The notes beneath the pieces were generated by a model. The model was not told the DNA's origin, made no database searches, and was given only the letters and a program-made list of their open reading frames with translations. From a virus: 25,832 nucleotides of DNA. The position numbers and the translations under genes were made by a program. Positions 1,453 to 23,162 of the stretch are shown here, in pieces. The number at the start of each line of letters is the position of its first letter. Position 1 is the first letter of the stretch. The stretch lies in the IMG/VR virus record IMGVR_UViG_3300042891_001275, positions 1 to 25,832 of that record, one strand, 5' to 3'.

Positions 1453-3342
1453 ATGAGCAATAACAAATATCTATTAGTATTAGAAAGATCTGAGGGTAAC
1501 CTTTCGGCTTCTAAGGACGGAGATAAATATGTGTTGGAAGGTGTTTTTACCGAAATCGGTGTAAAAAACAAAAACAATCGTATTTATGACGAGAGAGAAT
1601 TGATGCCACATATCAATGAACTTAAGGAAAAACTTAAAGGCAATAAATTGTTAGGTGAATTAGATCACCCGAAATCTTTCGATATCTCTTTAAAAAATGC
1701 ATCACACGTAATTGAAGATATTAATTACGATCCTGCTTCTAAAAAAGTAATGGGACGTATTAGACTTCTTAATACCGATGCTGGAAAACAAGCAATGGCT
1801 TTAGTCGATGCAGGTGTTCCTTTACATATTTCTAGTCGTGCTGCTGGAGTTGTAGAAAATAATGGTCACGTTAAAATCAAAAAAATGTTTACTTATGATT
1901 TAGTTGCAGATCCTGGATTTGCTAATGCTGAATTAAAAAGAGTTAACGAATCTTTTGGATTTGGTGATGACGATACAGTTGCAATTTATGAAACTGATAT
2001 CGATCTACGATTAGAAGAATCAACTATTGAAGAAGAAAAAACAGTAGTTGCTGAAGTTGTTGATACAGAAGATAAAACAAACACATCTATAACAGAAAAA
2101 CAAAACAACGCAATGGATCCTAAAAAATACATTACCGTTGAAGATTTTAATGAGTATTCTAAAATCGTTAAAAACGAATTTGAAAATCTTAAAAAATCTT
2201 TAACTGAATCCAAATCAAATGAAACCGCTTCAGTTAACGAAGGTCTTGTAAAATACACCGAAACTGTTGCAAAAAGAGTTAATCAAGTACAAGAATACGT
2301 TGAAAGATTAGCTGAATCTGTTGATGGTCTTATTTCACATAATGACTACATCATCGAAAACCTAGAAAAGGTTAAAAATTATGCTGAATTAGTTGGTGAG
2401 AAAACTAGCCAAGGAATTAACTACGGTGAGAAACTTGCTGAATCAGTTGACCACTTAATTGAATACACTAGATTAGTTGCTGAAAAAGCTGATCAAGGAA
2501 TTGAATTTACAAAATATGTTGCTAATGAATCTAACAACCGTTGGAAATATCAATCTTATATGAATGAGCAATTAGACAATGTAATCTCACATAACGATTA
2601 TATCGTTGAAGGAACTTCTTCAGTTATTGAGTACACTGAATACTTGAAAGAACAAACTGAAAACCTTTCTAATTACATGAACCACATCGTTGAACAAATC
2701 AATGAAGGTGCTATCTTCAAAACTGAAGATAAATCAAATGAAGGTGAAGAAACTAAAGCAACTGAAACTACTGAGGTAAATGAAGGAGCTAAAGCAACCG
2801 AAACTACACTTTCTTTTGAAGAAGATCTAACTAAGAAAATCGATTCTATCGTTGAAGCTGCTAAAGCTGAAAAACAAGCTTCTATCGTAAATAACAAATT
2901 ACACTTCTTAAATTTCATTTCTGAAAGTAAAAGAAATCAATTTGCTTCTTTAAACCCTGAAGTAAAAGATAAAGTAATCGCTGCTTTTGAAGGAAATAAA
3001 TTCTATGGTTCAGTTGATGCTGAAAGAATTTATGAATCAATTTTCTTAACTGAAATCGTTCCTCTTAACTGGTTATCTAATATGCCTGAGAAATATAAAG
3101 CTACTTGGAATGGTTTGAATGAATCACAAAAAACAGCTATTAAAGCTCAAGCTTCAGTTAAAGTTCTAGATTCACAATATAAAATCGATGACTTCTGGGC
3201 TACCAGAGATTTAAGAGATATTAAAGTTGAATTAAACGAAAGCACTGAACCTATCGTTATTAATGAATCAGCTAAATATGAATCTCCAGCTAATTACATG
3301 GAAACTGTTGAAGCTGAATTGAGAAGACGTTTCAAAAGATAA
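1453..3342 (+). CDS. Prohead protease (gp21-like) fused to capsid scaffold (gp22-like)
   Basis: Residues 1-166 form a T4 gp21-type (peptidase S77) prohead protease: GELDHP with His72, a second conserved His85 in ASHVIE, and HISSRAAG with Ser127/Ser128 as the nucleophile region. Residues 167-629 are acidic, Lys/Glu-rich and largely helical like a gp22 scaffold, with eleven consecutive 14-residue repeats (268 to about 420) and a conserved-looking C-terminal domain (FWATRDLRD near 590). In T4 these are separate proteins of 212 and 269 residues; here one 629-residue frame carries both. The junction reads VNE-S (164-167), and further [ILV]NE-[SGA] sites occur through the scaffold part, so the precursor may process itself. 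An internal ATG at 2113 (Met221) could give free scaffold as well. Domain calls are from sequence; self-cleavage is inference. Confidence 0.88.
   Translation: MSNNKYLLVLERSEGNLSASKDGDKYVLEGVFTEIGVKNKNNRIYDERELMPHINELKEKLKGNKLLGELDHPKSFDISLKNASHVIEDINYDPASKKVMGRIRLLNTDAGKQAMALVDAGVPLHISSRAAGVVENNGHVKIKKMFTYDLVADPGFANAELKRVNESFGFGDDDTVAIYETDIDLRLEESTIEEEKTVVAEVVDTEDKTNTSITEKQNNAMDPKKYITVEDFNEYSKIVKNEFENLKKSLTESKSNETASVNEGLVKYTETVAKRVNQVQEYVERLAESVDGLISHNDYIIENLEKVKNYAELVGEKTSQGINYGEKLAESVDHLIEYTRLVAEKADQGIEFTKYVANESNNRWKYQSYMNEQLDNVISHNDYIVEGTSSVIEYTEYLKEQTENLSNYMNHIVEQINEGAIFKTEDKSNEGEETKATETTEVNEGAKATETTLSFEEDLTKKIDSIVEAAKAEKQASIVNNKLHFLNFISESKRNQFASLNPEVKDKVIAAFEGNKFYGSVDAERIYESIFLTEIVPLNWLSNMPEKYKATWNGLNESQKTAIKAQASVKVLDSQYKIDDFWATRDLRDIKVELNESTEPIVINESAKYESPANYMETVEAELRRRFKR
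2254..2715 (+). repeat. 42-bp (14-residue) tandem coding repeat in the scaffold
   Basis: From Tyr268 the protein repeats exactly every 14 residues for ten full units and a partial eleventh. Each starts Tyr, Phe or His, has a hydrophobic residue at position 5, usually Glu or Asn at 7, and a hydrophobic residue at about 12. Two units are nearly the same (HNDYIIENLEKVKN and HNDYIVEGTSSVIE). Fourteen residues equal two heptads, so a long continuous coiled coil is expected. DNA copies have diverged, so this is an old protein-level repeat. Confidence 0.85.
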
Positions 3343-3513: not shown

Positions 3514-5112
3514 ATGTACTTAATTAACGAATCTGAAATTTTCGGTAAATGGGCTCCAATCTTGGAATCTAACACTGGAATCACTGAGCGTTCTAAAGTT
3601 GAGTGGATGTCAAAATACTGTCATTACCATGAACTTTATGAAAACAACTCTTTAGCACAACTAGGAGCTGTAAACGGTATGGGAGCTACTCGTTTCCCAG
3701 GTAACCCTGGAACACAAGATGCTTTCTCTACACAAGCAACTGGATCTGGTGATAAAGCTCACACACTTCTTCCATTAGCAATGCAAGTTGCTGCACAAAC
3801 TGTAGGTCTTGACCTTGTACCAGTTGTTCCAATGCCTGGTCCAATGGGTGTATTAACTTACCTTGACTTTGTTTATGGTGGTGGTCAAACTTCTGGAACA
3901 GGAGTTAACGTTCCTCTTTTAATCAAAGCTAACGTAGGTTCTACTGCTGCTGTAGGTGCTTCAGCTGTTACTAACGGTGTTACTTTCTACTATGTAGGAG
4001 CTTCTCGTTTAGATGGTAATGCTATCTACCGTATCGATGGTTCTCTTTCTTCTGGAACTATCTTAACTAACCTTGCTGGTGCAACAGCGGTTGCTGCTTT
4101 CTTCGGAACTCCAACTTCAGTTGAATTAGTAAAAGCTCTTGAAGATCACATCACTGGTTTCTCTGGTCAAGCTTTAGCTAACAATGACTACACTGGAACT
4201 GATATCAACGATCCTTATTCTAGAGCTCAAGGTGAGTCTACGACTGACAACGTAATGAACTTAAGTTTATTCAACAAATCAGTTGAAGCTAAGACTTTCC
4301 AAGTTGCTGCTGCAGTAACTCGTGAGCAAGTTCAAGACTTGAAACAATTTGGTATCGATGCTGTATCTCAAGTAGAATCAGTACTTATCAATGAGTTAAC
4401 TCAATCAATCAACAAAAACATCCTAGGACGTTTATTCGCTTTAGGAGAAAGAAACCACGCTCAAGTTATTACTACTCAAGGAACTAACTTCTTCGTAAAC
4501 TTAGGAGCTACTGCATTAACTGTTACTGCTTCTGCTTCTGCTAACACTGCTACTGCATTCGGTGGATATATCCAAACTACTTCTTTATTGAACGCTTCTA
4601 TGGCTCCTACTGAAATCTTAAACAGTGCTTCAGAAAACTTACACACTCGTCAACGTAAGATCATGTCTAAAATCTTAGCTATCGCTAACTTGATCGCTAT
4701 TAGAGGTCGTCGTGGTCCAGCTACTTTCGTAGTAACTAACGGACAAGTTTGTTCAGCTTTACAAGATGTTGCAGGTTTCGTACCAGCTCCAATGGCTAAC
4801 ACAATCAACCAAATGAGTGGATCTCTTTACCCAATCGGTACTCTTGCAGGTCTTGCTATCTACAACGATCCAAACATGGCTTGGAACGATACTCGTATGT
4901 GTGTAGGTCGTAAAGGTGACGGTAACTCTCCAGGACTTGTATTCATGCCTTACTTAATGGCTGAATCGGTTCAAACTATCGCTGAAGGTACTATGGCTCC
5001 GAAAGTTGCTGTAAAATCTCGTTATGCTTTAGTAGAGGCTGGTTTCCACCCACAAACTATGTACTTTACTTCAGGTGTATTTATGTCTTCCGATTTCGGT
5101 TCATTGGTATAA
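3514..5112 (+). CDS. 23: Major capsid protein, T4 gp23-like
   Basis: Main head shell subunit; 532 residues against 521 in T4 gp23. The N-terminus SEIFGKWAPILES lines up with T4 AELLNKWKPLLEG. LDLVPVVPMPGPMG is the conserved block present in T4 as IAFDICGVQPMNSPTG, and the segment near 255-300 (VEAKTFQVAAAVTREQVQDL, then FGIDAVSQVESVLINELTQS) matches the gp23 block on the E-loop side. The product opens MYLINE-S, the [ILV]NE-[AS] site seen in other leaders here; a LYE-N site at 41-44 is an alternative nearer the T4 maturation position. Codon choice is strongly biased to a few codons, as expected for a very highly expressed gene. It has its own putative promoter and a strong terminator. Confidence 0.95.
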   Translation: MYLINESEIFGKWAPILESNTGITERSKVEWMSKYCHYHELYENNSLAQLGAVNGMGATRFPGNPGTQDAFSTQATGSGDKAHTLLPLAMQVAAQTVGLDLVPVVPMPGPMGVLTYLDFVYGGGQTSGTGVNVPLLIKANVGSTAAVGASAVTNGVTFYYVGASRLDGNAIYRIDGSLSSGTILTNLAGATAVAAFFGTPTSVELVKALEDHITGFSGQALANNDYTGTDINDPYSRAQGESTTDNVMNLSLFNKSVEAKTFQVAAAVTREQVQDLKQFGIDAVSQVESVLINELTQSINKNILGRLFALGERNHAQVITTQGTNFFVNLGATALTVTASASANTATAFGGYIQTTSLLNASMAPTEILNSASENLHTRQRKIMSKILAIANLIAIRGRRGPATFVVTNGQVCSALQDVAGFVPAPMANTINQMSGSLYPIGTLAGLAIYNDPNMAWNDTRMCVGRKGDGNSPGLVFMPYLMAESVQTIAEGTMAPKVAVKSRYALVEAGFHPQTMYFTSGVFMSSDFGSLV

Positions 5113-5779: not shown

Positions 5780-7174
5780 ATGAAAGACAACCAGATATTC
5801 GAATCCCATCTCATTTCGTTGTATGAAAATACAATAAATGAATCCGATGAAAAGAAAGAAAAGAAAGAAAATCCTGAAGTAGAGAAATTCAAAGAATCTA
5901 CGGTAAAAAATCCAAAGACAGGAAATAAAGTTAAAGTTTCTACGGTATTGAAAGATCCTGAAAATCCTTTACATGATAAAGTGAAGAAGGAATTAGATAA
6001 AGTGAAAGCTTCAGCTGAGGGTGGAGAAGACAAAGAAGATAAAGAAGAGGAGGAAAACCCAGAAGAAAATATCAAAGCTCTAACTCAAAATATTGAAGAT
6101 GAAAGAGTAGCTATCGAAGCTTCTAAGAATAAAATAAAGGACTTAGAAAAGCAGAAAAAAGCTTCTACGGATCCTGATTCTTTTGATAAAGCTATCCAAA
6201 AGGAAAAAACTCGTATAGAGCAAGGAGAAGAAGATATTAAAGAAATGAAAGCTAAAAAAGAAGCAGAAAAGAAAAAAATTGCTTCTGCTCCTGAAACTCC
6301 TTCTAAAACTGAAGAAAAGCCAGAAACAACTGAAACTCCTGAAGAAAAACCTGAAACAACTGAAACTCCCGAAGAAAAACCTGAAAAGGGTGAAGGTGAT
6401 GAAGGTGAAGGCGAAAAAGATACAGCTAAAATCGAAGCTCTTAAAAAAGAAATTGATAAGCTAGAATCAGTATATGATTCTAAGAAAGAAGCTACACAAA
6501 ACAGATTTGGTAGTTTAGCCGAAAAAACTGATTCCCTAGCGACCAATGGTCTTCTAGAAGAATTTGTTAAAAAAGAAAGAGCTAAAGCAAAAGCTGAATT
6601 TAACGAAAAAATACTTTCTTTCTTGGTTGATGCTGAGCAAAAGACTGAAATTCAAGACAGAATAAAAGAGGAAAATGCTCGAGCTAAAAAGATTGAAAAT
6701 GAATTAGATCAAGCTCAAAAAGCAGCAGATGAAAAAAATGCTGACGATCCTAAATATCAAGAAGCTAAAGAACAAACTGCTGGAGCATCAGGTGAAGATG
6801 TTGATATGACGGTTTCTAAATCAGAAGATAAACCTAAAGGTAAATCCGAAGAAGGAGAGAAAACAAAATCTCCCGAAGAAGCTGCAAAAGAACAAAAGAA
6901 AAAAGAGATTGATTATAATCTAGAAGTTCTTACTACTAAAATCGAAAAGGTTAAATCTGCTGCTGATAAAGCTAAAGCAGATGGTAAAGACGAGAAAGTT
7001 TTAGCGGCCATCAATAAGAATTATGAAGATATGAAGAAAGCCATCGATGATCTTAAATCTCAAAAAGAAAAACTTGGTGAATCTTTTGATTCGATTGAAT
7101 TAGAAATTTGGGCTTTAGATGTTGCTGTAACTTCACTTCTAGAACAAATAGAAACCGGTTATCTTTTTGAATAA
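5780..7174 (+). CDS. Highly charged coiled-coil protein with capsid-targeting-like leader, candidate internal head protein
   Basis: 464 residues, dominated by Lys, Glu, Asp and Ala with long predicted coiled-coil stretches and a Pro/Glu/Thr linker of repeated PETTETPEEK near 180-205. The N-terminus reaches NTINE-SDEK at residues 18-25, the same [ILV]NE-[AS] junction as in other leaders in this window. The last 40 residues turn hydrophobic (LEIWALDVAVTSLLEQI), so a small folded C-terminal piece is likely. Its position after the capsid gene and its composition recall T4 prohead core proteins, but I see no alignable homologue. It overlaps the next gene by one base (TAATG), suggesting translational coupling. 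Confidence 0.78.
   Translation: MKDNQIFESHLISLYENTINESDEKKEKKENPEVEKFKESTVKNPKTGNKVKVSTVLKDPENPLHDKVKKELDKVKASAEGGEDKEDKEEEENPEENIKALTQNIEDERVAIEASKNKIKDLEKQKKASTDPDSFDKAIQKEKTRIEQGEEDIKEMKAKKEAEKKKIASAPETPSKTEEKPETTETPEEKPETTETPEEKPEKGEGDEGEGEKDTAKIEALKKEIDKLESVYDSKKEATQNRFGSLAEKTDSLATNGLLEEFVKKERAKAKAEFNEKILSFLVDAEQKTEIQDRIKEENARAKKIENELDQAQKAADEKNADDPKYQEAKEQTAGASGEDVDMTVSKSEDKPKGKSEEGEKTKSPEEAAKEQKKKEIDYNLEVLTTKIEKVKSAADKAKADGKDEKVLAAINKNYEDMKKAIDDLKSQKEKLGESFDSIELEIWALDVAVTSLLEQIETGYLFE
6311..6385 (+). repeat. 30-bp tandem coding repeat (2.5 units)
   Basis: Two and a half units encoding EEKPETTETP, nearly identical at DNA level (last-unit changes are silent except at the end). A flexible, acidic linker; copy number may vary among relatives. 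Confidence 0.8.
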
Positions 7175-7662
7175 TGATTGAATTAAAAAGGCAAAATAGA
7201 GGTAAAGCTCCTACTAAATGGGGAATACTTCTAAAAGGACTTCCACCTAGATATCGAAAGATTTTATCAAATAATCAGATATTTAAGAGATACTCTGAGG
7301 ATGATAGATTCATTCTAAGCATATTTAAAATGGAAGATGCCAATATAAAGGTATCATATTTAAAGAGACCGTTCATCAATCCTGAATCAAAAGAGGTGTC
7401 TACGTATTCAAACGTGATAGGACAATATAAAATTTTCGATTGGACATGTGCTTATTGTAAGACCCCAATTAAATCCAGGATAGATAATTATAAAGCAAGC
7501 AATTTTACTTGTCAAAAATGTTTTAACTACTACATTAAGGATTCTCAAACGTATAATCAAAGAATCGTAGATGCATCAGTTGAATTTACTACATTTTGTA
7601 AGAGATTAATGCTAGATAACCAGAAAAAATTTATAAAATACATAAAGAAAAATGAAAACTAG
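7174..7662 (+). CDS. Small zinc-ribbon protein, function unknown
   Basis: 162 residues, basic. Cys92-x2-Cys95 (CAYC) and Cys113-x2-Cys116 (CQKC) are spaced as in a four-cysteine zinc ribbon. The N-terminal half (LPPRYRKIL, RFILSIFKMED) looks like a small mixed alpha/beta domain, and the C-terminus is Lys-rich. The start overlaps the previous stop (TAATG), and the end overlaps the ATP-grasp gene by 11 bases, so it belongs to that operon. Zinc-ribbon proteins in T4-like late regions can be late transcription factors or assembly factors, but nothing here decides between these. Confidence 0.75.
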   Translation: MIELKRQNRGKAPTKWGILLKGLPPRYRKILSNNQIFKRYSEDDRFILSIFKMEDANIKVSYLKRPFINPESKEVSTYSNVIGQYKIFDWTCAYCKTPIKSRIDNYKASNFTCQKCFNYYIKDSQTYNQRIVDASVEFTTFCKRLMLDNQKKFIKYIKKNEN

Positions 7663-9136
7663 ATTCTCATATTTTAGTGACTTCGTTTTAAACGAAGCAA
7701 AGAAATCTCCTTCAGCTCCAAAGGGAAAAATAAAAGTTATTTTGCTATCTAATGTTAGTGAAGAATCTAAAACGGTTCCTAGCATTAAAGCTGAATGTGA
7801 AAGAAGAGGTGTTAAATTTGCTGTAATCAATATTGATAAAGCAAAACTTACTAAGAATCCAGACGGAGAAACATTCACTATTTATGATAATGAATCTAAG
7901 ATGAAAATATCTTCTGAGGACACTGCTATCTTAACCAGAAGAGGTGTTGTTAAAAACACTTACACTAGAGATCTTGTTGAACAATTAGAGAGTGCTAATT
8001 TCTTTGTTGTAAACACTTTAGAATCTATTATTGCTTGTGAAAACAAATATGTTACATCTAAAATTCTTATGGATGCAGGAATTCCTGTTCCGAGAATGGC
8101 ATTGATTGAAAATGAAGAATCTATCGACGATGCTGTTAAAGCTATAGGTGGACAATTTCCAGTGGTTCTTAAAATGCTTTCAGGTTCACAAGGAATTGGA
8201 GTTTCTATTGTTGATTCAATAGGTTCATTGAAATCAGTTATGCAAACAATTTGGAAGGCTAATTCAAGTGTTGAATTGCTAATTCAAGAAAAAATCGAAT
8301 CTGAATATGATTTGAGAATTCACGTTTTAACTCGTAAATTCAATTCACCTACACCTGACGATACTGATTCGGTTCTTCTTGGATATATGAGACGTAACCG
8401 AGTTAAGAAAGACTTTAGAACTAATTACTCATTAGGTGGAACCGTTGAAAAAACCAAAGTAACTCCTGAACAAGAAAAAATTGCAATTGAATCTGCAAAA
8501 GCTATTGGTTGTAATTGGTGTGGTGTTGATATCATCGTTGATAAGAAAACAGGTAAAAACTACGTATTAGAAGTTAACGCATCACCGGGAACTGAAGGAC
8601 TTAAAAAAGCTACAGGAGTTGATGTTGTAAAAGATATTATTGACTTTATTTCTGATAAACAAAATTGGATTCGTTCTCGTAAAACTATCGGATTCCGTGA
8701 AGTTGTTACGATTCCTGGTCTTGGAGATTTCGTTTCTAAATTTGATACAGGAAACGGAGCTCTTTCATGTTCATTAACTTATGACGAGGCTAAACTTGCC
8801 GATGATAAAAAGACGGTTTCATGGGAATTAGGTGGAAAAAAATTCACAAATAAAGTTATTGGATTCTCTAATGCCGAAGTTGGTCATGTTGTTCAAGAGA
8901 GACCAATCATTACAATGGATATTGTTTTTGCAGGTAAAACTTACAAAGATGTACATGTTTCATTGGTAGATAGAAAAGAGAAATCAACTAAATTCTTGGT
9001 CAATCGTAAATTTATGGAAAGAATTGGATGTTCGGTTAGTCCATTCAAAACATTCGTAATAACTTCTTTTGACGGAGAATACAACGTAGGAGAAGCAAAA
9101 GGAAATAATCATATAGGAATCAAATTCGAAAAATAA
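7652..9136 (+). CDS. RimK-like ATP-grasp glutamate ligase with retropepsin-like C-terminal domain and capsid-targeting-like leader
   Basis: 494 residues. A leader, MKTRFSYFSDFVLNE-A (cut expected after Glu15), is followed by a RimK-type ATP-grasp enzyme: FPVVLKMLSGSQGIGV (nucleotide-binding loop, about 168-183), YDLRIHVL, DFRTNYSLGG and LEVNASPGTEGLKKATG (Glu307 and Asn309 as Mg ligands). The family adds glutamate to protein or peptide C-termini, such as ribosomal protein S6. From about 345 a second domain carries FDTGNGALSCSL (Asp365-Thr-Gly) and a downstream SLVDR...FLVNRKFM segment, the pattern of the RimB/COG4067 retropepsin-like proteases often encoded beside rimK. Both activities in one chain could be writer and eraser, or one domain could recognise substrate. 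The leader suggests the enzyme is packaged and injected. Domains are seen; packaging and substrate are inference. Confidence 0.88.
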   Translation: MKTRFSYFSDFVLNEAKKSPSAPKGKIKVILLSNVSEESKTVPSIKAECERRGVKFAVINIDKAKLTKNPDGETFTIYDNESKMKISSEDTAILTRRGVVKNTYTRDLVEQLESANFFVVNTLESIIACENKYVTSKILMDAGIPVPRMALIENEESIDDAVKAIGGQFPVVLKMLSGSQGIGVSIVDSIGSLKSVMQTIWKANSSVELLIQEKIESEYDLRIHVLTRKFNSPTPDDTDSVLLGYMRRNRVKKDFRTNYSLGGTVEKTKVTPEQEKIAIESAKAIGCNWCGVDIIVDKKTGKNYVLEVNASPGTEGLKKATGVDVVKDIIDFISDKQNWIRSRKTIGFREVVTIPGLGDFVSKFDTGNGALSCSLTYDEAKLADDKKTVSWELGGKKFTNKVIGFSNAEVGHVVQERPIITMDIVFAGKTYKDVHVSLVDRKEKSTKFLVNRKFMERIGCSVSPFKTFVITSFDGEYNVGEAKGNNHIGIKFEK

Positions 9137-9137
9137 T

Positions 9138-9407
9138 ATGAAAAATCTTAAATCTTTATCACAATACATTAACGAGGCATCCACTAGCATAATGGCTGGG
9201 GACCGTACTATTAATGAACCAAAAGAATATATGTTCTTTGGTAATCTTAAAACTATCAAATCCAGAATTGATGAAATGTTAGCTATGGACCCTGTTAAAG
9301 TTGAAGCTATGTTGCAAGATGGACATGCTTGGGCGGTGGATCATATAGCAACATCAAAGGATGATATTGAAGAAGTTGCTGATTTTCTAAAGAATAACGT
9401 AAAATAA
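9138..9407 (+). CDS. Small protein with capsid-targeting-like leader
   Basis: 89 residues. The leader [14 protein letters not shown] closely resembles T4 internal-protein leaders (MKTYQEFIAE-A) and the leader of the protein at 12578. After it come a short acidic region and a helical C-terminal domain ([31 protein letters not shown]). A second INE at 25-27 is followed by Pro and is less likely to be cut. One base separates it from the ATP-grasp gene, so the two are probably co-expressed. Trimmed, it would be about 76 residues, the size of T4 internal proteins. No family recognised. Confidence 0.8.
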
Positions 9408-9800: not shown

Positions 9801-10244
9801 TTAATTATTACAAATACAAGCTTTTTCAGAAATTGGTTTAGAAACGAATTCAGTTCCTTTCCCAGAACCTGAATCAGAAACTCTAAGTCCTTCATTTCTA
9901 TCAATTGCCATCCAATCAAATTCAACTAGATCCATTTCATTTAAATGATCTATAACAATTTGTATGTCATATTTTTTACAAGAATAGATGTCAAATTGGA
10001 ACATAGGTACCTCATAAGCATCCCAAATATGGATTGATGAATGTGAAGTTGCCAAAGTTACGGTTCCAGTTAAACCTTCATTTCCAATTTCGTCTACATA
10101 TACAGAAGTAGGTCCGGCCACAACGACCATACCAACTCTCTCTACCAAACGTTTGAACCAGTTGTTAAGGTCTTCTGCTGACTTGAAAGGTTTTTTACAA
10201 TAACCTTTAATGAGCAGGTGTTGATGATAAGGTACAAATCCCAT
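9801..10244 (-). CDS. speD: S-adenosylmethionine decarboxylase-like pyruvoyl enzyme (SpeD homologue)
   Basis: 147 residues and the only minus-strand gene in the window. The SpeD core is clear: HLLIKGY near the start (usual HLL/HLV), then GLTGTVTLATSHSSIHIW, matching the bacterial pattern GVSGVVVISESHLTIHTW. Ser67 would become the pyruvoyl group after self-cleavage, His72 matches the catalytic His, and Cys89 in DIYSC matches the catalytic Cys. The residue before the cleavage Ser, normally Glu, is Thr66. SpeD makes decarboxylated AdoMet for spermidine synthesis. Some phage and bacterial SpeD homologues are reported to act instead on ornithine or arginine, so substrate is open. T4-like cyanophages also carry speD, which supports an auxiliary metabolic role. 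It ends at the shared terminator and is divergent from the next gene. Confidence 0.82.
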   Translation of the reverse strand: MGFVPYHQHLLIKGYCKKPFKSAEDLNNWFKRLVERVGMVVVAGPTSVYVDEIGNEGLTGTVTLATSHSSIHIWDAYEVPMFQFDIYSCKKYDIQIVIDHLNEMDLVEFDWMAIDRNEGLRVSDSGSGKGTEFVSKPISEKACICNN

Positions 10245-12577: not shown

Positions 12578-13048
12578 ATGAAAAATTTACCTTCTTTTGA
12601 GCAATTCGTAAATGAGGCTCAAGATTTTAGTGATATAACTAAATATTTCTGTATAAATCCTGAAGATTCAGGGGTTATAAGAAAAAATTCTAAATTCCGT
12701 CAATCTCAAGGTATGTATGTAGATACTAAATTCGGGAGAGTTGAAAGACAAAAACTAATTAATTATATTTTTGAAGGGATTAAGAAGAAATATAAAGACG
12801 CAGAATTAATTCCAAATGATCAACCTTATTCAGCTTTTACTGATGTTATTAATTACGCAGGAAATAAATTACGATTTTCCGATACTCATATGAATATCGA
12901 AGAGGCTAAAGATTTTCAATTGAAATTACCTAAAATCGAAAAACATATTAAATATATTCATAGTTCTATAACTACGCTAGATAAAACAATAAACATTGAA
13001 TTTGGTGATCTAGATCGTATCATAAATTATATTCTAGAGGTGATCTAA
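12578..13048 (+). CDS. Protein with capsid-targeting-like leader, function unknown
   Basis: 156 residues. The leader MKNLPSFEQFVNE-A (cut expected after Glu13) is of the same form as in the proteins at 7652 and 9138 and matches T4 internal-protein leaders. The remainder is a basic alpha/beta protein (GRVERQKLINYIFEGIKKKY, DKTINIEFGDLDRIINYILEVI) without a recognised motif. It lies among replication genes rather than head genes but is followed by its own terminator at 13069. If the leader is functional, this is a packaged protein encoded away from the head cluster, as with several T4 internal proteins. Confidence 0.75.
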   Translation: MKNLPSFEQFVNEAQDFSDITKYFCINPEDSGVIRKNSKFRQSQGMYVDTKFGRVERQKLINYIFEGIKKKYKDAELIPNDQPYSAFTDVINYAGNKLRFSDTHMNIEEAKDFQLKLPKIEKHIKYIHSSITTLDKTINIEFGDLDRIINYILEVI

Positions 13049-21206: not shown

Positions 21207-21246
21207 ATTTTGTCGAATAAATAATAAAAACACGTTCGACAAATGT
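21207..21246 (+). promoter_or_regulatory. Hairpin enclosing the start codon of the T9SS cargo gene
   Basis: TTTGTCGAA (21209-21217) and TTCGACAAA (21235-21243) are perfect inverted repeats around a 17-base AT-rich loop. Pairing can extend through the ATG (ACAAATGT with ACATTTTGT, one bulged T). The RNA stem would hide the initiation codon. It lacks a T run, so is not an ordinary terminator. Confidence 0.55.
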
Positions 21247-23162
21247 TTAAACTTTTCAAAGTGTGCTTGTTGGCTATGCTTCTTGCTTTGCCATCTTTGA
21301 TCTTTGCACAATCAGGACCTCCTGCCCCTGGAACTGGGGTCTATGCTATTATTGATACCACATATCAAGTTGGTACTCATACACAAGGCAATTCAAAAGC
21401 TAAAATAACTCTTAAAAACACAACAGGAACTCTTATAACAGGGGTTCAATTTCGTGTTTTCTACGACAAAAATGCCTTCTCTTCGGCAACTCCTGCTTTG
21501 TTAGGTAGTACAACAAACTTAGATCTTCAATATGTAGATAATAATGCTAATGGTCATTTGACTATTACTTTAGTTTATACAGGATCTTCTTCTACTTACA
21601 CATTAGCAAATGCTGAAACTTTCGAAGTTACATTCAATCACGTTGGAGCTGCATCATTCTATGCTCTATCTACAATCACCGATTTGACTTGGACTGGAGT
21701 AAACACATTCCCTCAATTAGCTTCTACAAACCCCGGTTTAGATACTACTTTAAACTTACATAGCTATGGTGGTGTGTGGGAAAAACCTGAACTTAATTTT
21801 CATGGTACTTTCACAAACGTAACTGGAACTGGTGCTAAAAACCTAGCTTTATCTCTTGAGAAAAAGGTTAAGGTTGGTGGAACTTGGGCTCAACACTCTT
21901 CTTACACAACTGACATTAATGGTGATTTCGCATTTACAGAAATTATCGATACAACCTACTATGATGTACGTTTAGCAATTAAAGGAGATACAATGACCGT
22001 TGGTAACGTTATCTCTACCGCTGATGCACAATTAATTAATCAATGGGTTCTAGGTTCTTCTACTCCATCAGGTTGGGATTTTTATAGTGGTGATGTTAAT
22101 GGATCTAATGGTTTATCAATTACCGATGCTTATGGTGTATTTGGTAGAATTGCTGGTAGATTCTCAGTTTGGCCAAATAACGTAAAAGATGTTAAATTCT
22201 TTACAGTTGCTGAAAAGAATACAATCACCGGAACACCTTCAACTAACTACACATCTACTATTCCAGGTGTAACTAATTTCTATTATGATATACTTCCAGG
22301 ACAACCTGATTCAGTTCAATTCTATGTACTTGTACCAGGTGATGCTAACGGAACAGGATATCACATGGCTCGTGTAACGCCAATTGATGTTGTAATCAAT
22401 CCTCTTCCAGGAACTCCAGCTCAACAAGAAAATGTTATTGATACCAGAGTTGAATATGATTTTCCTACTTCATCTATAGAAATTAACGTTCCTTACCTTT
22501 CAGTTAAAGAAGGTAATTTAGTAGAAGTTCCGGTTACTGTTAAATCTAACGGATTAGATATTTCATCTTTACAAATGGGAATGTTATATGACAACGACAT
22601 TTTAGAATTTAAAGATGTTTATAACTCACCAAAATCTATGTTTTGGCTTTCATCGGTAAATCCAACCGGTGGTATTATTGAATGGGCAGGATTTGATCCT
22701 TCTGCTAATAAAGCTTATTCCATTCCAGATGGATACAATATATTCACAATAAGATTTACTGCTAAATCACCACAAAATGATTGGTCACAATCACCTCTTT
22801 ATACAACTCGTAAATTTTCTGGAGATATTAATTCTAAAGATCTTACTATTAATCCAGCAAATGGAATACTTATAGTTGCAAAAATGGCTAGTGGATTCGA
22901 TATAATTGAAGATGCTATGAAAGTATTCCCTAACCCTACAACGGGTGAATTTTCGGTTGACTTTACGGTTAAAGAAACTGGTCTTGTTAAATTATACGTT
23001 ACCGATCTAAATGGGAAAATTTTATCGGTAATATTAGATAAAAATATGCCTGCAGGAAATTACGTATATTCATCAAACATAAATAACGTTTCAACCGGAA
23101 TTTATTTTACAAATCTACAAACTGAAGATAAATTATCTTCTTCAAAACTAATCAAAAAATAA
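21243..23162 (+). CDS. Secreted cohesin/dockerin-like protein with type IX secretion C-terminal sorting domain
   Basis: 639 residues. Sec signal peptide at 1-22 (FKVCLLAMLLALPSLIFAQ). A cohesin-like beta domain at about 33-180 is followed by a small beta domain (185-250) with a DINGDFAF turn. A dockerin-like pair of calcium loops spans about 252-305 (NVISTADAQLINQWVLG and GDVNGSNGLSITDAYGVFG). A second cohesin-like domain lies at about 420-550 (LSVKEGNLVEVPVTVKSNG). The last 80 residues are a type A T9SS sorting domain (VFPNPTTGEFSVDF, KLYVTDLNGKIL, LPAGNYVY-like MPAGNYVY, STGIYF, SSSKLIKK). The product should be exported by Sec, then moved to the cell surface by the host T9SS. It may be captured from a host gene. 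Role is open: surface masking, exclusion, or adhesion. Confidence 0.88.
   Translation: MFKLFKVCLLAMLLALPSLIFAQSGPPAPGTGVYAIIDTTYQVGTHTQGNSKAKITLKNTTGTLITGVQFRVFYDKNAFSSATPALLGSTTNLDLQYVDNNANGHLTITLVYTGSSSTYTLANAETFEVTFNHVGAASFYALSTITDLTWTGVNTFPQLASTNPGLDTTLNLHSYGGVWEKPELNFHGTFTNVTGTGAKNLALSLEKKVKVGGTWAQHSSYTTDINGDFAFTEIIDTTYYDVRLAIKGDTMTVGNVISTADAQLINQWVLGSSTPSGWDFYSGDVNGSNGLSITDAYGVFGRIAGRFSVWPNNVKDVKFFTVAEKNTITGTPSTNYTSTIPGVTNFYYDILPGQPDSVQFYVLVPGDANGTGYHMARVTPIDVVINPLPGTPAQQENVIDTRVEYDFPTSSIEINVPYLSVKEGNLVEVPVTVKSNGLDISSLQMGMLYDNDILEFKDVYNSPKSMFWLSSVNPTGGIIEWAGFDPSANKAYSIPDGYNIFTIRFTAKSPQNDWSQSPLYTTRKFSGDINSKDLTINPANGILIVAKMASGFDIIEDAMKVFPNPTTGEFSVDFTVKETGLVKLYVTDLNGKILSVILDKNMPAGNYVYSSNINNVSTGIYFTNLQTEDKLSSSKLIKK

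What the first reader, a model, noticed from the sequence alone, without database searches (positions are those of the whole stretch)
7652..9136. RimK-like glutamate ligase plus retropepsin domain likely carried inside the virion
The ATP-grasp motifs (SGSQGIG, FRTN..LGG, EVNASPG) and the DTG motif of the RimB-like protease family are intact, and a capsid-targeting-like leader precedes them. T4 packs and injects the enzyme Alt to modify host proteins at once. A packaged protein-glutamylating enzyme with a possible eraser domain would be a new means of host takeover, perhaps aimed at ribosomal protein S6 or another C-terminus.
Basis: partly seen in the sequence, partly recalled or inferred. Interest (0 to 1): 0.82.

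Follow-up and report, generated by a model that had tools for sequence, protein, structure and literature searches.

The report
Phage glutamate ligase with head-packaging leader
A large T4-like virus of bacteria carries an enzyme that probably adds and trims glutamate tails on proteins, and the enzyme bears the same kind of removable address tag that T4 uses to load proteins into its head, so it is probably injected into the next host with the DNA.

Summary
ORF 7652-9136 encodes 494 aa: a 15-residue leader, a RimK-type ATP-grasp ligase (27-340) and a retropepsin of the RimB/DUF785 family (341-494). All tested catalytic residues are invariant in 49 relatives. Models match RimK crystals (Z 31) and bacterial retropepsins (Z 15.7). 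The fusion itself is not new: RimK with C-terminal DUF785 was reported from marine T4-like phage contigs in 2008, and bacterial RimBK hybrids, in the opposite order, in 2025. What is new here is the packaging evidence. The leader is a T4-type capsid-targeting sequence ending in a gp21-type site (L/I/V-x-E|A/S). It occurs in 40 of 48 non-redundant relatives against 44 of 893 other genes in the same loci. In a 294-kb relative, near-identical leaders head about 33 proteins whose remaining parts share no detectable similarity. The motif picks only ipII and ipIII from 63 genes of T4, and the ligase is the only clear hit in Pelagibacter phage Mosig. A Yersinia phage homologue was found in purified virions by others. 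Packaging is therefore likely; ejection, activity and target are inferred. S6 is not supported as the target. New variant of a known kind.

The parts
7652..7696 (+). Capsid-targeting-like leader, residues 1-15 MKTRFSYFSDFVLNE; predicted prohead-protease cut after Glu15
   Evidence: conserved leader in relatives; disordered in model; T4 ipII/ipIII leader MKTYQEFIAE|A
7730..8671 (+). RimK-type glutamate ligase (pre-ATP-grasp and ATP-grasp, residues 27-340)
   Evidence: PF08443, TIGR00768; fold match to RimK 7qys/5zk6, Z 30-31
8672..9133 (+). RimB/DUF785-type retropepsin domain, residues 341-494
   Evidence: profile match to 9g59/9g58/2pma; model Z 15.7 to RloA2; PF05618 in 31/49 relatives
8744..8752 (+). 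Asp365-Thr-Gly catalytic motif of the retropepsin domain
   Evidence: D and G invariant, T 48/49
1453..3342 (+). Prohead core protease (gp21 type, peptidase S77) with long C-terminal extension; the expected leader peptidase
   Evidence: PF03420 1.4e-13, phrog_207; 11 [LIV]xE|[AS] sites against 2.2 expected
3514..5112 (+). Major capsid protein gp23
   Evidence: PF07068 5.7e-37
5780..7174 (+). Charged coiled protein, probable scaffold (gp22-like by position and composition only)
   Evidence: sequence and position; no family match
9138..9407 (+). Next gene, 89 aa, with leader [14 protein letters not shown]: second candidate packaged protein
   Evidence: conserved beside the ligase in part of the close clade
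12578..13048 (+). 156-aa protein with leader MKNLPSFEQFVNE|A: third candidate packaged protein

Best explanation
A head-packaged, probably ejected RimK-RimB enzyme. Made with the head proteins, it is drawn into the prohead core by its N-terminal leader and the phage's gp21-type protease cuts the leader off after Glu15 (inferred from sequence). The mature 479-residue enzyme stays in the head with the DNA and enters the next cell (inferred). There the ATP-grasp domain uses ATP to add glutamate to a protein end or peptide, and the retropepsin domain, working as a dimer because it has one DTG, trims glutamate chains or stimulates the ligase as RimB does (inferred from family biochemistry). The target is probably a host protein; which one is unknown.
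For: Family and fold of both domains with invariant active sites. Leader: 40/48 non-redundant relatives against 44/893 other genes of the same loci; site composition P3 L/I/V, P2 mostly N, P1 E, P1' mostly A/S; strict motif finds only ipII and ipIII in 63 T4 genes; one clear hit, the ligase, in the Mosig genome. In the 294-kb relative about 33 proteins carry the leader and their mature parts show no pairwise homology; one of them matches PHROG 'internal head protein'. Head-gene order portal-protease-gp23-...-ligase kept in the close clade. T4 biology: 10 leader residues suffice for targeting into the head and gp21 cuts after L/I-x-E (PMC9026906). YerA41 homologue detected in purified particles (PMC7354516 Table 3, g112*; record product 'structural protein').
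Against: No virion of this clade has been analysed. YerA41's homologue has no clear leader of this type and its particle list of 63 proteins includes many enzymes that could be co-purified. Four of 48 relatives lack the cleavage site altogether. Counts are not independent because sequences are related and genes were called naively. RimBK of Desulfotalea showed protease but no RpsF glutamylation (PMC11957791). Activity and target are untested.
Confidence: 0.6

Rival explanations
1. Packaged, but works on the phage's own head proteins: it glutamylates or trims core, scaffold or capsid proteins during head assembly and is only incidentally ejected.
For: Gene lies in the head gene cluster shortly after the probable scaffold gene in the close clade; RimB cuts internal polyglutamate (PMC11957791) and the scaffold-like protein is very Glu-rich.
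Against: In other clades no head genes are found beside it within the fetched flanks, yet the leader is kept; T4 heads mature without such an enzyme.
Confidence: 0.15
2. Packaged or not, it makes something other than a modified host protein: free poly-glutamate, a small peptide, or a modification that defeats a host defence.
For: RimK-fold relatives make many different amide products (LysX, MptN, CofF); RimK makes poly-alpha-glutamate in vitro (PMC11957791); T4 IPI is an injected anti-restriction protein (PMC3012670).
Against: No biosynthetic partner genes noticed nearby; nothing in the sequence selects this over protein modification.
Confidence: 0.15
3. An ordinary cytoplasmic takeover enzyme made after infection; the leader is a chance or has another use.
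For: Cyanophage RimK homologues lack both leader and protease domain; YerA41 gene peaks in the middle phase.
Against: Leader enrichment in the family and on unrelated proteins, T4 and Mosig controls; cleavage-site match to the prohead protease's own sites.
Confidence: 0.1

Closest known systems
Marine phage RimK homologues with C-terminal DUF785 (Monier et al. 2008, PMC2530865)
   Same: T4-like phages; RimK ATP-grasp followed by DUF785/PF05618; proposed role in modifying translation
   Different: In the passages read, no capsid-targeting leader, packaging or retropepsin nature was described
Bacterial RimB/RimK and RimBK hybrid (PMC11957791)
   Same: Same two activities predicted: glutamate ligase and polyglutamate-cutting retropepsin with DTG
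   Different: RimBK has the protease at the N-terminus; here it is C-terminal, in a phage, with a removable leader
T4 internal proteins IPI-III and Alt (PMC9026906, PMC3012670)
   Same: Leader with aromatic-x-x-aromatic then hydrophobic-x-Glu before the gp21 cut; packaged and ejected
   Different: T4 cargo is an ADP-ribosyltransferase and small internal proteins, one an anti-restriction protein, not a glutamate ligase
Yersinia phage YerA41 g112/YerA41_066 (PMC7354516)
   Same: RimK plus retropepsin with FDTGN, about 32% identity; found in purified particles
   Different: Different N-terminus without a clear leader of this type

Membership tests
RimK family alpha-L-glutamate ligase (TIGR00768, PF08443) | Score over curated cut-off and RimK fold | tested here: met
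   164.6 against 143.4 bits; PF08443 127 against 21; Z 30-31 to RimK crystals
RimK family alpha-L-glutamate ligase (TIGR00768, PF08443) | ATP-grasp catalytic and Mg/ATP residues | tested here: met
   K174, D293, E307, N309, R222, R256 invariant in 49 sequences
30S ribosomal protein S6--L-glutamate ligase (PRK10446 equivalog) | Score over the equivalog cut-off | tested here: not met
   102.1 against 331 bits
RimB/DUF785 retropepsin (PF05618) | DTG motif and retropepsin-like fold | tested here: met
   D365 and G367 invariant; profile hits 9g59, 9g58, 2pma; Z 15.7 and 15.2
RimB/DUF785 retropepsin (PF05618) | Cleaves polyglutamate | not testable with these tools
   needs protein assay
RimBK hybrid as described in bacteria | RimB domain at the N-terminus of RimK | tested here: not met
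   order here is RimK then RimB
T4 capsid-targeting sequence | Short N-terminal leader, aromatic-x-x-aromatic then L/I-x-E before Ala | tested here: met
   F8-x-x-F11, L13-N-E15|A16; one extra residue against T4 spacing in this protein, exact spacing in many relatives
T4 capsid-targeting sequence | Shared by otherwise unrelated proteins of the phage | tested here: met
   3 genes in window; about 33 in G002 with no homology in mature parts
T4 capsid-targeting sequence | Removed by prohead protease; protein in virion | not testable with these tools
   protease present; needs virion proteomics

The most novel reading that the evidence does not exclude
Jumbo T4-like phages of Bacteroidota load their heads with a large set of leader-tagged proteins, among them a glutamate ligase joined to its own trimming protease, which is injected to put glutamate tails on host proteins at the first moment of infection.
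Probability: 0.5. Interest if true: 0.78.

Novelty: new variant of a known kind. Interest (0 to 1): 0.6.

Why it matters
If right, injected host modification by tailed phages is not limited to ADP-ribosylation (Alt): protein glutamylation joins it. The leader also offers a simple sequence rule to list the packaged cargo of many uncultured jumbo phages, most of it of unknown function, which makes the question of what these phages inject directly testable.

Tried and rejected
Pfam scan of the window protein alone gave no retropepsin hit; the family scan, profile search and separate domain model settled it. The whole-protein fold search listed only ATP-grasp structures among its best PDB rows, so the C-terminal domain was modelled alone. 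S6 as target: C-termini of S6 from a sample of the Saprospiraceae contig's phylum vary, some ending in Glu runs and others in Lys-Ala; 8 of 31 loci gave no central ORF and a few picked ORFs are clearly not S6, so this is only a hint. Genome-wide bacterial search gave four loci, two of them small contigs, and no clear cellular source. Looking for a leader of the same type in YerA41 virion proteins found none. Searching the literature for RimK with virion, and for polyglutamylation with phages, found no report of a packaged RimK beyond YerA41.

Full report
What is there. The ORF at 7652-9136 is intact and encodes 494 residues. The window is a 25.8-kb IMG/VR virus record with a T4-type head module: portal-position gene, prohead protease (PF03420), gp23 (PF07068), then further head genes and the ligase. 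A phage ORF at 21243-23162 carries a T9SS sorting domain over its cut-off (38 against 23 bits), which points to a Bacteroidota host; this is one line of evidence only.

The enzyme. Residues 27-340 are a RimK-family ligase by HMM and fold (7qys Z 31.0; 5zk6, RimK with RpsF, Z 30.0). Residues 341-494 are a RimB/DUF785 retropepsin: a 44-sequence profile matches 9g59, 9g58 and 2pma, and the domain model (pLDDT 91) matches them at Z 14.7-15.7 and HIV protease at about 8.5. One DTG per chain implies a dimer, as for RimB. Active-site residues of both domains are invariant or nearly so in 49 relatives down to 43% identity, so both activities are probably kept.

The leader. Relatives begin with varied sequences that keep a hydrophobic/aromatic patch and end in L/I/V-x-E|A/S. 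40 of 48 non-redundant relatives match the longer motif against 44 of 893 other ORFs in the same loci (Fisher 8e-39, to be read as descriptive because sequences are related and ORFs were called naively). The strict motif finds exactly ipII and ipIII among 63 genes in a 49-kb T4 stretch. In Pelagibacter phage Mosig the ligase is the only clear hit in the three stretches that cover the genome. In the 294-kb relative G002 the strict motif heads 28 of 411 genes, 6.8%, against 0.26% in internal windows; with a looser motif about 33 convincing cases, whose parts after the cut share no homologous pair at E<=1e-3. One of these matches the PHROG 'internal head protein' (6e-4), others weakly match ART-PolyVal, RNA 2'-phosphotransferase and cytidylyltransferase families. 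In T4, ten leader residues suffice for incorporation into the head, residues 4 and 7 direct targeting and 8 and 10 processing, and gp21 cuts after L/I-x-E (PMC9026906). The window's prohead protease is itself rich in such sites, 11 against 2.2 expected.

Independent evidence. The YerA41 homologue (L001, YerA41_066) is annotated 'structural protein' and corresponds by gene order to g112, 'Ribosomal protein modification protein', starred as found by LC-MS/MS in purified particles (PMC7354516). The g112 to 066 match is my inference from order beside the ribonucleotide reductase genes. Its N-terminus is not an obvious leader of this type, and co-purification is possible.

What is already known. 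Monier et al. 2008 (PMC2530865) reported phage RimK in T4-like marine contigs, several with DUF785 after the ATP-grasp domain, and suggested modification of translation proteins. The 2025 JBC paper (PMC11957791) showed RimB to be a retropepsin that removes glutamates from RpsF and stimulates RimK, and described RimBK hybrids with the protease first, mostly in Flavobacteriales and Rhodobacterales, with protease activity but no RpsF glutamylation seen. So the fusion is known; the capsid-targeting leader is the new part.

Shown, and inferred. Shown: both domains, conserved active sites, a conserved leader shared by unrelated proteins, synteny with head genes in the close clade. Inferred: cleavage, packaging, ejection, activity, and a host protein as target. 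S6 is not favoured (as a hint only).

Noticed in passing
L114-L128 (record of locus L009, 294 kb): About 33 leader-tagged proteins in one jumbo phage, mature parts mutually non-homologous: a probable list of packaged cargo, mostly of unknown function.
   Followed up: partly
L119:9748-10218 and L119:10218-10610: Leader-bearing proteins weakly matching ART-PolyVal (0.0011) and RNA 2'-phosphotransferase (0.00025): possible Alt-like injected enzymes.
   Followed up: partly
window 9801-10244 (-): S-adenosylmethionine decarboxylase-like ORF (TIGR03330 4e-8, below cut-off) on the opposite strand, conserved beside the head module in several relatives.
   Followed up: no
window 21243-23162: Phage-borne protein with a T9SS type A sorting domain, suggesting secretion through a Bacteroidota host system.
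   Followed up: no
L095, L101, L103, L104, L107 N-termini: A subclade has an N-terminus of another kind (..DFIFQG, ..FVFKG), in most of them without the Glu site; either not packaged or a different protease specificity.
   Followed up: no
window 1453-3342: Prohead protease carries a long C-terminal extension full of its own type of cleavage sites, as if protease and core protein were fused.
   Followed up: partly
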